Positions 1,217-6,307 of a stretch of 6,560 nucleotides of DNA are shown here, in pieces. The position numbers were made by a program, and so were the translations under genes. The notes beneath the pieces were generated by a model, which had not been told where the DNA came from, searched no databases, and worked only from the letters and a program-made list of their open reading frames with translations. The stretch is from Candidatus Mcinerneyibacteriota bacterium (GTDB lineage Bacteria; AUK180; JAQVHJ01). Within the stretch, counting starts at the first letter, position 1. The number at the start of each line of letters is the position of its first letter. The DNA lies in assembly GCA_030630935.1 (NCBI GenBank), contig DAOVMD010000178.1, positions 1 to 6,560 on the forward strand, in the 5' to 3' direction.

Positions 1217-1242
1217 TTTTATTTTAATTTTTCAGATTGAGA
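1217..1242 (-). repeat. 26-base dispersed repeat, copy 1 (inverted relative to 3353-3378)
   Basis: This block on the minus strand equals 3353-3378 on the plus strand over all 26 bases (begins TCTCAATCTGAAAAATTAAA). In both places it follows the TTGTTTCC-type hairpin: about 70 bases after it here and 11 bases after it at 3322-3341. The second copy therefore looks like the same element with an internal deletion. Confidence 0.8.
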
Positions 1243-1310
1243 TTGAGTACGAGACCAAGTATTGTTAGCATTTATTACTGTCTCGATCTGATATCTCGGT
1301 CTTGATACTG

Positions 1311-1330
1311 TTGTTTTCCAGAGGAAACAA
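1311..1330 (-). terminator. Hairpin directly after tRNA-Glu (family copy 1)
   Basis: On the minus strand TTGTTTCC (1330-1323), loop TCT, GGAAAACAA (1319-1311) forms an 8-bp stem with one bulged A, beginning at the first base after the encoded CCA. There is no T-run, so it may be a processing or 3'-end-protecting hairpin rather than a true intrinsic terminator. The same hairpin recurs at 1866-1886, 3322-3341 and 6008-6026. Confidence 0.55.
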
Positions 1331-1406
1331 TGGCGTCCCCAAGGGGAGTCGAACCCCTATTGCCGCCGTGAAAGGGCAGTGTCCTAAACCATTAGACGAT
1401 GGGGAC
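1331..1406 (-). tRNA. tRNA-Glu (anticodon TTC)
   Basis: The complete 76-base cloverleaf is on the minus strand, with CCA encoded at 1333-1331. The acceptor stem GTCCCCA pairs with TGGGGAC and the discriminator is G. The D arm is GTCT/GGAC. The anticodon stem CTGCC/GGCGG holds the loop CTTTCAC, giving anticodon TTC (1372-1370), which reads GAA/GAG. The T arm contains GGTTCGACT. It lies 18 bases after tRNA-Lys and is probably cotranscribed with it from the promoter at 1523-1551. Its 3' end (bases 1321-1343 including flank) is repeated exactly at 5995-6017 on the other strand. Confidence 0.97.
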
Positions 1407-1551: not shown

Positions 1552-1811
1552 GTAATTTTCATAAAAACGTTTCTCGATATTCGTTATTTGTTGTTCGTGT
1601 TCTTTTTCTTTGAGACTGAGAACGAGACCAAGTCGGTTAACTCTGTTAACCTCACCGAGAGCAGAGAGCAGAGAACAGAGAGCCGAAAACAGATACCATA
1701 AAAAGAATTTATTTTAATTTTCTTGTTTAGAGGAGCAAATGTTTTTTAGTAATAAGTGTATAAAAAATATCCAATATTCCAGTAAGAGTAAGAGTTCGAG
1801 TTTGAGACGTC
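1552..1811. other. Intergenic repeat region between tRNA-Lys and tRNA-Gln
   Basis: No gene is visible; open frames here run through purine-rich repeats. In order it holds GAGACTGAGAACGAGACCAA (1614-1633), which resembles 1241-1259; a TCT-loop hairpin (1635-1651); a GAGAGCAGAGAACAG-rich string (1657-1684); GTTTAGAGGAGCAAA (1725-1739), matching 1829-1843 at 14 of 15 bases; and the left end of the tRNA-Gln-associated repeat (from 1775). Confidence 0.6.
1635..1651. repeat. TCT-loop hairpin followed by GAGAGC-rich tract
   Basis: GGTTAAC (1635-1641) pairs perfectly with GTTAACC (1645-1651) around TCT. A purine-rich tract of GAGAGCAGAGAAC type follows (1657-1684). The same hairpin-plus-tract order, with the same AAC-TCT-GTT core, occurs at 2160-2244 in the opposite orientation. 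Confidence 0.55.
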
Positions 1812-1813
1812 AT

Positions 1814-1839
1814 AAATAAAAACTCCCCGTTTAGGGGAG
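1814..1839 (-). terminator. Intrinsic terminator of tRNA-Gln
   Basis: On the minus strand the stem CTCCCC (1839-1834), loop TAAAC and stem GGGGAG (1828-1823) are followed by TTTTTATTT (1822-1814). This is a GC stem with a T-run and fits rho-independent termination about 48 bases after the tRNA. Confidence 0.85.
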
Positions 1840-1865
1840 CAAACTCAAACTGATTACTCAAACAG

Positions 1866-1886
1866 TTGTTTTCCGAAGGGAAACAA
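1866..1886 (-). repeat. Hairpin directly after tRNA-Gln (family copy 2)
   Basis: On the minus strand TTGTTTCC (1886-1879), loop CTTC and GGAAAACAA (1874-1866) form a stem that begins at the base after CCA. Its placement relative to the tRNA is exactly that of the tRNA-Glu copy. Confidence 0.7.
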
Positions 1887-1960
1887 TGGCTGGGGAGGAA
1901 GGATTCGAACCCTCATCGACGGAGCCAGAGTCCGTTGTCTTACCATTGGACGACTCCCCA
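1887..1960 (-). tRNA. tRNA-Gln (anticodon CTG)
   Basis: This is a 74-base cloverleaf on the minus strand with encoded CCA at 1889-1887. The acceptor TGGGGAG pairs with CTCCCCA and the discriminator is G; the U1-A72 pair and G73 are glutamine identity features in bacteria. The anticodon stem ACGGA/TCCGT holds the loop CTCTGGC, so the anticodon is CTG (1928-1926), which reads CAG only. A TTG isoacceptor must lie elsewhere. The T arm GAGGG/CCTTC contains TTCGAAT. It has its own promoter and terminator. Confidence 0.97.
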
Positions 1961-1977: not shown

Positions 1978-2006
1978 ATTATAACAAAAATACTTAATTT
2001 TGTCAA
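1978..2006 (-). promoter_or_regulatory. Consensus promoter of tRNA-Gln
   Basis: On the minus strand TTGACA (2006-2001), a 17-base spacer and TATAAT (1983-1978) match the sigma-70 consensus at all 12 positions. The start near 1971 leaves a leader of about 10 bases. Confidence 0.9.
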
Positions 2007-2306: not shown

Positions 2307-3320
2307 ATGGAAAGTTTTATTAAGTTTCCCCAGCAATTTTTTAATAATATTCCTAAACATAATAGCACTTTGGACCAATTTGATGATGGCTTGCAGTTGC
2401 TTAAATATTTATTAAGGCTAAGCATTTATTTTAATGAAGTAGAGATTTTAATCTCAACTAATGACTGGTTAAGGGCAAGAAAAATATTAGATAAATCCGA
2501 GGAACAATTAAAGAAATCAAAGCACTTCTTAGTTTATCTACCCAGGATAAAGAAATTAAGTGCTTGGGTTCATAATGTTAAGTCGGAATTTTCAGAATCT
2601 GAATCCGAGTTAAATCTTGGTTTAATTATAGCCAAGGAACTTCAAAATAAAAAAACCTATTCTGAGTTACTTCTTCATTTGGGTAATTGTTATTTTTATC
2701 AGACCAAATATGATAAGGCCCTGGATTGTTATAACCAGGTAAAGGAAATCACCTTAAAAACCATGAAGAATAACCCTGATGATCTTGAGTATTTAAAGTT
2801 GCATGCCAGTATTCTAAATAATATCGGGATGATTTACTAAAATAAAAATGATTTGCAGAATGCCCTGGAATTTTTAAATCAATCTGTAGAGATAAATTCT
2901 CAAATCAGCAACAAGGATAAAAACATTGGTGTTGTCTTTTTAAATATCTCAGAAATCTTATTGAATCAGAAAAATTATACCAGCTCTCTCCAGTACCTGA
3001 AAAAAGCTATCAAGATATTTAATCGGTACCATGATAAACTTTGGCAAGCAGAAGCATTGCTTCGAAGAGGTAAAATTTATCTTGCCCGGAATAAATTTTC
3101 CAAAGCATTAATTTTCATAAAAGATTGTATTAAAATAAAAACAAAAGTAAAGGATAAATTGGGTGTGATAAAAGGGTATGATATGTTAGGTGATTTATAT
3201 TTGAAGCAGGATTTAAATCGAAAAGCAATCAGATCTTTTAAGAAAGCTTTAGAAACCGCTCATATAATTCACCACGAATTCTATATTAAAAAATTCCAGG
3301 AGAAACTGGAAACCCTCTGA
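2307..3320 (+). pseudogene. TPR-repeat protein interrupted by one in-frame TAA
   Basis: A single frame encodes 177 residues, a TAA at 2838-2840, then 159 more residues to TGA at 3318-3320. Both halves are tetratricopeptide repeats, with helical pairs around residues 120-149 (LLLHLGNCYFYQTKYDKALD), 168-200 and three more after the stop (SEILLNQKNYTSSL, GKIYLARNKFSKAL, GDLYLKQDLNRKAI). The TAA falls inside a repeat, GMIY-stop-NKNDLQNALEF, exactly where the sister repeats carry Leu, Phe or Leu after the same position, and the spacing to the conserved Ala is unchanged. One T-to-A change of a TTA Leu codon would explain it. The downstream part has no plausible start or ribosome site; its first possible initiator is TTG 2853. 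There is no signal peptide, so the ancestral product was cytoplasmic, probably a protein-interaction scaffold. A sequencing error or a truncated functional 177-residue protein remain possible. Confidence 0.8.
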
Positions 3321-3321
3321 A

Positions 3322-3341
3322 TTGTTTCCTCTCGTAAACAA
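3322..3341 (+). terminator. Hairpin after the TPR gene (family copy 3)
   Basis: TTGTTT (3322-3327) pairs with AAACAA (3336-3341) around CCTCTCGT, starting two bases after the TPR stop codon. The sequence ATTGTTTCCTCT...AAACAACAG matches the tRNA-Glu hairpin. There is no immediate T-run. It is the only copy of this hairpin in the window that follows a protein gene. Confidence 0.5.
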
Positions 3342-3352
3342 CAGTAATTAGT

Positions 3353-3378
3353 TCTCAATCTGAAAAATTAAAATAAAA
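3353..3378 (+). repeat. 26-base dispersed repeat, copy 2
   Basis: Identical over 26 bases to the reverse complement of 1217-1242. Together with the hairpin at 3322-3341 it reproduces the downstream region of tRNA-Glu with about 60 bases missing from the middle. Read on the minus strand it is T-rich and could also assist termination of the WG-repeat gene, whose stop codon is 20 bases away. Confidence 0.8.
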
Positions 3379-4021: not shown

Positions 4022-4046
4022 GCCAATCTGCTTCTAGCAGATTGGC
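4022..4046. repeat. Perfect 10-bp hairpin at the left edge of the GCATTTGAA element
   Basis: GCCAATCTGC (4022-4031) pairs with GCAGATTGGC (4037-4046) around TTCTA. In the second copy of the element the same place holds a different small hairpin, ATTGC-GTCA-GCAAT (6167-6180). A hairpin before GGCAGAGC is therefore kept in position while its sequence differs. Confidence 0.6.
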
Positions 4047-4168
4047 AGAGCATTTGAAATTAGAACATTTGAACAGTAGAGCAAAGAACAAAATGTTTGG
4101 ACAGGTAATCATATTTGAGTGGACTTATCACTTCAAATGCGGTCTAATGATCTAATGCTCAAATTTCT
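4041..4168 (+). repeat. GCATTTGAA element, copy 1
   Basis: The left end ATTGGCAGAGCATTTGAAAT and the four bases after it (4041-4064) are identical over 24 bases to 6179-6202. The right end TCAAATGCGGTCTAATG (4133-4149) is identical over 17 bases to 6247-6263, and TCAAATTTCT follows in both. The ends carry a 9-bp inverted repeat, GCATTTGAA (4050-4058) and TTCAAATGC (4132-4140). The middle differs between copies. This copy has an 8-9 base duplication, TCTAATGA/TCTAATGC, near the right end. There is no coding capacity; it looks like a MITE-like or palindromic interspersed element. Confidence 0.75.
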
Positions 4169-5926: not shown

Positions 5927-5994
5927 ATTAAACTAACTTTAGAATATCTGAAATCTTAATTAAATCTTCAATAATTTGGTTCGAATTTTGTAAA

Positions 5995-6026
5995 CTTGGG
6001 GACGCCATTGTTTCCTCCGGAAACAA
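5995..6026 (+). repeat. Orphan tRNA-Glu 3' end with hairpin (family copy 4)
   Basis: Bases 5995-6017 equal the reverse complement of 1321-1343 over 23 bases: the last 13 bases of tRNA-Glu including CCA, plus the start of the hairpin. The hairpin is perfect here, TTGTTTCC (6008-6015), loop TCC, GGAAACAA (6019-6026). Upstream, GGTTCGAAT (5978-5986) resembles a tRNA T-loop, but no D arm, anticodon arm or 5' acceptor strand can be found, so this is a fragment and not a gene. Confidence 0.8.
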
Positions 6027-6117
6027 CAGTTTGTGTAATCAGTTTGTGTTTGCTCCTGTAAACAGGAGTATCTTATTAATAACGTCTCAAACACGAACCC
6101 TTACTCTTACTGAAATA
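6005..6117 (+). repeat. 115-base tRNA-associated repeat, copy 2
   Basis: It matches the region after tRNA-Gln (1889-1775, minus strand) along its whole length with only substitutions and one- or two-base gaps. The internal stem CTCCTG (6053-6058)/CAGGAG (6063-6068), loop TAAA, differs from CTCCCC/GGGGAG by two paired changes. The T-run after the stem has decayed to TATCTTATT, so termination here is probably weaker. Confidence 0.85.
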
Positions 6118-6178: not shown

Positions 6179-6273
6179 ATTGGCAGAGCATTTGAAATTA
6201 GAGGAGACATTATAACATCTGGGAGATTTTAATTAAGGGTAAAGAATCAAATGCGGTCTAATGTTCAAATTTC
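6179..6273 (+). repeat. GCATTTGAA element, copy 2
   Basis: It shares the 24-base left end (6179-6202) and the 17-base right end (6247-6263) with copy 1 in the same orientation. Its middle is shorter and unrelated (6203-6246). A small ATTGC-GTCA-GCAAT hairpin (6167-6180) precedes it. It ends about 40 bases before the -35 box of the AbiEi-like gene. Confidence 0.75.
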
Positions 6274-6307
6274 TGAGACAGAAGACAGAGGCCGGCACCA
6301 CAAAAAA

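What the first reader, a model, noticed from the sequence alone, without database searches (positions are those of the whole stretch)
1775..1889. 115-base element after tRNA-Gln recurs inverted at 6005-6117 with paired base changes in a stem
The two copies align over their full length. The stem CTCCCC/GGGGAG in one is CTCCTG/CAGGAG in the other: two stem positions changed with their partners. Flanking bases also vary, yet the hairpin at the start remains pairable in both. Paired change suggests selection on an RNA structure, so this may be a mobile or duplicated 3' module for tRNA transcripts, or a small RNA, rather than a neutral repeat. Only two copies are visible, so the covariation evidence is thin.
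Basis: partly seen in the sequence, partly recalled or inferred. Interest (0 to 1): 0.6.

Follow-up and report, generated by a model that had tools for sequence, protein, structure and literature searches.

The report
Dispersed double-hairpin repeat behind tRNA genes
The element is one of about a hundred copies of a two-hairpin palindromic repeat, found only in one small lineage of uncultured bacteria, that has repeatedly ended up directly behind tRNA genes; its paired base changes are real but look like upkeep of a DNA palindrome rather than of a dedicated tRNA-linked RNA.

Summary
In detail: window 1775-1889(-) and 6005-6117(+) are copies of one element (84% over 115 bases, E 5.5e-28), with the stated paired stem changes. 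Genome-wide it is a dispersed repeat: a short hairpin A joined to a long hairpin B flanked by CAGT...ACTG. B has two classes, with about 44 and 52 hits in the window's genome and 16 and 5 in a relative of another genus. None was found in the five other genomes of the class. Paired changes recur: hairpin A has at least eight stem types, almost all fully paired. Opposite arms of B fit their own partner better than swapped ones. But G.U pairs do not exceed A.C mismatches, and the opposite strand pairs better, so an RNA role for this strand is unsupported; palindrome upkeep in DNA suffices. Orientation to the upstream gene is random (35 same, 41 opposite), against a general 3' module. At tRNAs placement is strict: the element starts 0-2 bases after CCA at five tRNA genes in one genome and three in the other, lineage-specifically. 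Best reading: a REP/MITE-like repeat that docks behind structured sequences, tRNA genes and REP hairpins included. The mobiliser was not identified.

The parts
1887..1960 (-). tRNA-Gln(CTG) with encoded CCA; the element begins at the next base
   Evidence: ARAGORN; Rfam
1978..2006 (-). sigma-70-type promoter of the tRNA-Gln unit (TTGACA-17-TATAAT, 12 of 12)
   Evidence: consensus scan; inferred function
1866..1886 (-). copy 1, hairpin A (TTGTTTCC cttc GGAAAACAA)
   Evidence: sequence; family of stems
1780..1865 (-). copy 1, hairpin B class I (CTGTTTGAG...CTCTTACTG), arms pair over about 25 bases
   Evidence: covariance model hit 1780-1886
1823..1839 (-). apical stem CTCCCC/GGGGAG followed by TTTTTATTTAT: intrinsic-terminator-like, the first one behind tRNA-Gln
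5995..6007 (+). 13-base relic of a tRNA-Glu 3' end (CTTGGGGACGCCA); a GGTTCGA match at 5978-5984 may be decayed T-arm
   Evidence: I3; sequence comparison with tRNA-Glu 1331-1406
6008..6026 (+). copy 2, hairpin A (TTGTTTCC tcc GGAAACAA)
6027..6112 (+). copy 2, hairpin B class I, apical stem CTCCTG/CAGGAG
1331..1406 (-). tRNA-Glu(TTC), second gene of a Lys-Glu pair
1233..1330 (-). class II copy (hairpin A + CAGTATCAAGACC...CAATCTG) starting at the base after the CCA of tRNA-Glu
3321..3362 (+). deleted copy: hairpin A + CAGTAATTAGTTCTCAATCTG, beginning at the base after the TGA of the TPR gene
   Evidence: I6

Best explanation
A dispersed, non-coding, REP/MITE-like palindromic repeat. Its core is hairpin A (8-bp stem, 3-5 base loop) plus hairpin B (about 85 bases, imperfect inverted repeat CAGT...ACTG, class I or II). 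Shown: high copy number, precise left boundary, paired evolution of both hairpins, nesting with other repeats, lineage-specific presence and absence at orthologous tRNA loci. Inferred: it spreads as DNA, probably as single-strand hairpins handled by a transposase in trans (the genomes carry RAYT/IS200-type Y1 transposases, and one of them is flanked by a REP type that often sits directly in front of this element), and it joins preferentially to the 3' side of structured sequences: the acceptor end of tRNA genes and the ends of other REP hairpins. Paired changes are maintained because both arms must match for transposition and/or because quasi-palindromes are corrected by template switching. 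Behind tRNA-Gln the class I apical stem plus T-run may by accident act as the transcription terminator.
For: 47 matches in the own genome; nhmmer on the fetched loci gives 44+52 hits in G000 and 16+5 in G001. Left boundary constant at hairpin A behind quite different sequences: GTAGGGG-type REP, CGTCCC-type REP, the G001 ATCCCTCCGG repeat, CGGCAATCTC-type repeat, tRNA CCA. Hairpin A stems in 76 copies: 588 Watson-Crick pairs against 21 others, with TA/AT/GC exchanges at stem positions 1, 2, 3 and 7 in several combinations. Apical stems CCCC/GGGG, CCTG/CAGG, CCTA/TAGG, CTCTCC/GGAGAG. Arms of B: cognate mean -17.5 against -15.9 kcal/mol for swapped partners, 11 of 5000 permutations. Orientation to the upstream ORF random, 35 against 41. 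Presence/absence: tRNA-Leu(GAG) and tRNA-Pro(GGG) carry it in G000; in G001 Leu has an ordinary intrinsic terminator and Pro another REP-like inverted repeat. Classes swapped at Glu and Gln between the genomes. About a dozen nearly identical copies in G001 with different flanks. The RAYT-like gene L070 is flanked by the CGTCCC-type repeats that often precede the element.
Against: No Y1 or other transposase gene was found flanked by the complete A-B element; the one hairpin A beside an IS200-type gene (L068) is partial and that gene has its own repeats. No clear target-site duplication was seen, and at the occupied sites part of the neighbouring sequence (terminator, REP 3' half) is missing rather than displaced. 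The 3' boundary is variable. Strict placement at tRNAs could also reflect selection there.
Confidence: 0.68

Rival explanations
1. It is a functional RNA 3' module: hairpin A protects or guides 3' processing next to the CCA end and the class I apical stem terminates transcription of tRNA units; non-tRNA copies are decayed duplicates.
For: Starts 0-2 bases after CCA at Gln, Glu(TTC), Glu(CTC), Pro(GGG), Leu(GAG) in G000 and Glu, Gln, Arg(CCG) in G001, always in the sense direction; terminator-like stem with T-run behind tRNA-Gln; it took the place of an intrinsic terminator at tRNA-Leu.
Against: Most copies are elsewhere with random orientation yet have equally well paired stems; A.C mismatches are at least as common as G.U; opposite strand more stable; most tRNAs of the two genomes do without it; tRNA-Glu and tRNA-Leu carry class II, in which no terminator was found at tRNA-Glu.
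Confidence: 0.17
2. The compensatory changes arise without selection, by template-switch correction between the arms of quasi-palindromes during replication, acting on an otherwise neutral repeat.
For: Strand-neutral mismatch spectrum; whole-block arm changes (TTTGAG/CTCAAA to TAAGAG/CTCTTA) rather than single steps; the mechanism is described for hairpins in PMC8794818. Compatible with, and partly contained in, the best explanation.
Against: Hairpin A keeps 8 perfect pairs in widely differing contexts while the loop and linker vary, which also suits a requirement for the hairpin.
Confidence: 0.35
3. The tRNA-linked copies arose by retrocopying (SINE-like): read-through tRNA-element transcripts were reverse transcribed and inserted with 5' truncation, leaving tRNA 3' ends in front of new copies.
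For: Copy 2 carries 13 bases of the tRNA-Glu 3' end; copy 2 is the best match of the tRNA-Gln copy; a sequence resembling a group II intron 3' end, hence a possible reverse transcriptase, lies in the genome (L068).
Against: Only one clear tRNA relic among about 90 copies; other copies begin at the hairpin A foot rather than at scattered truncation points; no poly(A)-like constant 3' end across genera.
Confidence: 0.08

Closest known systems
REP / BIME elements, GTAG and CGTC superfamilies (PMC3733652), mobilised by RAYTs (PMC2817692, PMC3116915)
   Same: Short dispersed extragenic palindromes, multiple families per genome, paired stem changes between family members, clustering with other REPs, RAYT-like genes present; GTAGGGG- and CGTCCC-type repeats sit directly in front of many copies
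   Different: Two consecutive hairpins of about 107 bases; no GTAG or CGTC tag of its own (tRNA-linked copies lack it); no transposase gene flanked by it; recurrent abutment on tRNA CCA ends
Bacterial MITEs
   Same: Small, non-coding, terminal inverted arms, many copies, intergenic
   Different: No parental insertion sequence with these ends was found and no target duplication was seen
tyrT repeats / rtT RNA of E. coli (from memory; a paper search gave nothing useful)
   Same: Repeat following a tRNA gene and containing a piece of the tRNA 3' end
   Different: That is a tandem repeat at one locus; here copies are dispersed, behind many different tRNAs, and only one carries a tRNA piece; no Rfam match
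BOX and similar mosaic repeats (from memory)
   Same: Modular, mosaic composition with interchangeable parts
   Different: Not compared computationally; listed as an analogy only

Membership tests
GTAG/CGTC-tagged REP | Palindrome of 20-40 bp with an unpaired GTAG or CGTC tag at one end | tested here: not met
   About 25 G000 copies have GTAGGGG-type and 15 CGTCCC-type sequence in front, but the same modules occur without the element and tRNA-linked copies lack them
GTAG/CGTC-tagged REP | Association with a RAYT gene in the genome | tested here: inconclusive
   RAYT/IS200-type Y1 genes: 3 in G000, 7 in G001 (the two RAYT-like proteins score below the NCBIfam cut-off); none flanked by the complete element
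MITE | Terminal inverted repeats and high copy number without coding capacity | tested here: met
   CAGT...ACTG arms, about 100 copies, no element-encoded protein recognised
MITE | Target-site duplication and a parental IS with the same ends | tested here: not met
   No duplication seen in flanks; no parental element found in the Y1 loci examined; other transposase families not screened
Structured RNA / tRNA 3' module | Constant orientation to transcription units | tested here: not met
   35 same, 41 opposite to the upstream ORF; constant only at tRNAs
Structured RNA / tRNA 3' module | Compensatory changes with the RNA-specific excess of G.U over A.C on the sense strand | tested here: not met
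   Hairpin A: A.C 13 (about 5 are bulge artefacts), G.U 5; apical stem A.C 5, G.U 2
Structured RNA / tRNA 3' module | Stable transcript | not testable with these tools
   No expression data
Known Rfam family | Match at gathering score | tested here: not met
   Only tRNAs match

The most novel reading that the evidence does not exclude
A mobile palindromic repeat with a specific affinity for the 3' end of tRNA genes, recognising the folded acceptor end (in single-stranded DNA or RNA) as a docking site, which takes over the terminator region of tRNA units and is independently re-acquired in sister genera.
Probability: 0.3. Interest if true: 0.6.

Novelty: new variant of a known kind. Interest (0 to 1): 0.4.

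Why it matters
It shows that compensatory base changes between paralogous copies, the usual signature of a functional RNA, can come from a DNA palindrome family, and gives a simple control (G.U against A.C mismatches; opposite-strand stability). If the tRNA preference is target choice, tRNA ends are a natural landing site for hairpin transposition as well as for integrases.

Tried and rejected
Rfam at gathering and relaxed thresholds: only tRNA. RNAalifold on the whole element: weak covariation term (-0.3), because the periodic arms (GAGTTTGAGTTTG) misalign between copies; replaced by an arm-swap energy test. A general terminator for upstream genes: rejected on orientation. Integration by a tRNA-targeted integrase with two att copies: the tRNA-Glu 3' end copy at 5995 is inverted relative to tRNA-Glu and no integrase was recognised among the window's ORFs. 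Integron attC site: no obvious match to the core-site consensus by eye; not tested further. Presence in viral contigs: none with the degenerate pattern. Wider distribution: no hits in 39 of 41 genomes by BLAST and in none of the five other genomes of the class by covariance model. A loose regex scan gave noise only. A paper search for the sampling site of the named relative found nothing.

Full report
Observation. Apical stems CTCCCC/GGGGAG and CTCCTG/CAGGAG are as described. Copy 1 begins at the base after the encoded CCA of tRNA-Gln(CTG). Copy 2 follows 13 bases identical to the 3' end of tRNA-Glu (CTTGGGGACGCCA, 5995-6007), the end of a longer shared stretch (29 bases, 97%).

Extent and anatomy. 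A BLAST-type search of the window's own genome (G000, 3.16 Mb, 471 contigs, 80% complete) gives 47 matches. Aligning them shows a core of two hairpins. Hairpin A has an 8-bp stem and 3-5 base loop. Hairpin B, about 85 bases, runs from CAGT to ACTG with arms of about 25 bases and, in class I, an apical CTCCCC/GGGGAG-type stem followed by T-rich sequence. The repeat behind tRNA-Glu in the window (1233-1330, minus) has the same hairpin A but another B (class II); searching with it gives about 40 places in G000 and five in G001. Iterated nhmmer on the fetched loci gives 60 class I and 57 class II hits, of which 92 are non-overlapping at 40 bits or more.

Distribution. Of 41 genomes searched (the own genome and its nearest relatives) only G000 and G001 (same family, other genus) have it. 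A covariance model finds 43 and 16 places in these two and none in the five other genomes of the class. The only named public record found is JAQVHJ010000352.1, 'bacterium isolate STE_202'; it and G001 contig C464 have the same length (3317 bases) and show the same sequence around the element. IMG/VR has no match to the pattern.

Paired changes. In 76 copies of hairpin A, 588 of 609 stem pairs are Watson-Crick; positions 1, 2, 3 and 7 exchange TA, AT, GC and CG in several combinations, giving at least eight fully paired stems. Position 7 changes on three different backgrounds (TTG.., AAG.., AGA..), so compensations occurred more than once. The apical stem has at least four paired types. For B the arms are periodic and standard column-wise covariation is weak, but each left arm pairs on average better with its own right arm than with others: mean -17.5 against -15.9 kcal/mol, 11 of 5000 permutations as low, 6 of 5000 within G000 and no effect within G001, where copies are near-identical. 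Relatedness of copies is not removed by this test.

RNA or DNA. An RNA tolerates G.U but not A.C on the transcribed strand. Here non-Watson-Crick pairs are A.C 13 and G.U 5 in hairpin A (about five A.C are bulge misassignments) and 5 to 2 in the apical stem; as RNA the opposite strand would be more stable (-19.2). Orientation to the upstream ORF is 35 same, 41 opposite (crude ORF calls). Palindrome upkeep for hairpin-based mobility, or template-switch correction (PMC8794818), explains the data.

tRNA link. In G000 the element or its deleted form begins 0-2 bases after CCA at Gln(CTG), Glu(TTC), Glu(CTC), Pro(GGG) and Leu(GAG); in G001 at Glu(TTC), Gln(CTG) and Arg(CCG). About 100 copies, 30 tRNA genes and a 3-base tolerance on one strand would give about 0.001 by chance (own estimate, uniform placement; restricting to intergenic DNA raises it only several-fold). 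In two other genomes of the class, 0 of 53 tRNAs have a stem directly behind the 3' end, 1.05 expected from shuffles (the G000 line there includes one G001 contig). The link is lineage-specific: at the orthologous Leu(GAG) unit G001 has an ordinary terminator hairpin with T-run, G000 has class II and further repeats in its place, and a similar downstream promoter and gene start follow in both; at Pro(GGG) G001 has another REP-like inverted repeat. At Glu and Gln the two genomes carry opposite classes. So the position behind CCA has been occupied repeatedly, or exchanged by recombination.

Neighbours. The other copies mostly sit directly behind other repeats: about 25 in G000 behind a GTAGGGG-type module, 15 behind a CGTCCC-type module, 14 in G001 behind an ATCCCTCCGG repeat (the Leu copy is counted in the CGTCCC group because the tRNA itself contains CGTCCCC). 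The GTAGGGG modules recall the GTAG superfamily of REPs (PMC3733652). Y1 transposase genes of RAYT and IS200 type are present (3 and 7); the RAYT-like gene L070 is flanked by CGTCCC-type repeats. No gene flanked by the complete A-B element was found, so the mobiliser remains an inference.

Verdict. The tRNA 3'-module or small-RNA interpretation is not supported as a general role; a REP/MITE-like repeat with recurrent docking at tRNA 3' ends is the best reading. Behind tRNA-Gln the element supplies the first terminator-like site detected in that unit, so a local, secondary role there is plausible and testable.

Noticed in passing
window 2307-3320: A TPR-repeat gene is split by one in-frame TAA (2838-2840) into two ORFs of 177 and 155 aa, both with TPR matches; it looks like a recent pseudogene or a sequencing error.
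   Followed up: no
window 4041-4156 and 6179-6270: Another dispersed pair: ATTGGCAGAGCATTTGAAATTAGA (24 of 24 identical) and TCAAATGCGGTCTAATG repeated in the same order (D10 and D13).
   Followed up: no
window 6286-6300 and Y1 loci L072, L075, L076: The module GGCCGGCACC in the window also flanks the RAYT-like genes at L072, L075 and L076 in variant form: a candidate REP of that RAYT.
   Followed up: partly
L068:300-350: Sequence resembling the 3' end (domain V) of a group II intron (recognised by eye, not tested) upstream of an IS200-type transposase; that gene's 3' part carries a 25-base tandem repeat whose copies are inverted repeats of the hairpins in front of it.
   Followed up: partly
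G000 copies at C276, C36, C62:7845, C461, C242; G001 copies at C128, C185, C236: In these copies the element is lengthened by about 30-60 bases; in several a second hairpin of the type AGCCCTGAACCC...GGTTCATGGGTGCT is nested in the left arm of hairpin B.
   Followed up: partly
L014, L016, L019, L021, L026, L027, L028, L030: In these copies the right arm of hairpin B is interrupted by another repeat (GCGTTTCACAAACGAAGTG...GATCCCGATCAATTTC...GAAATTAAATCGGGA) with its own inverted arms.
   Followed up: no
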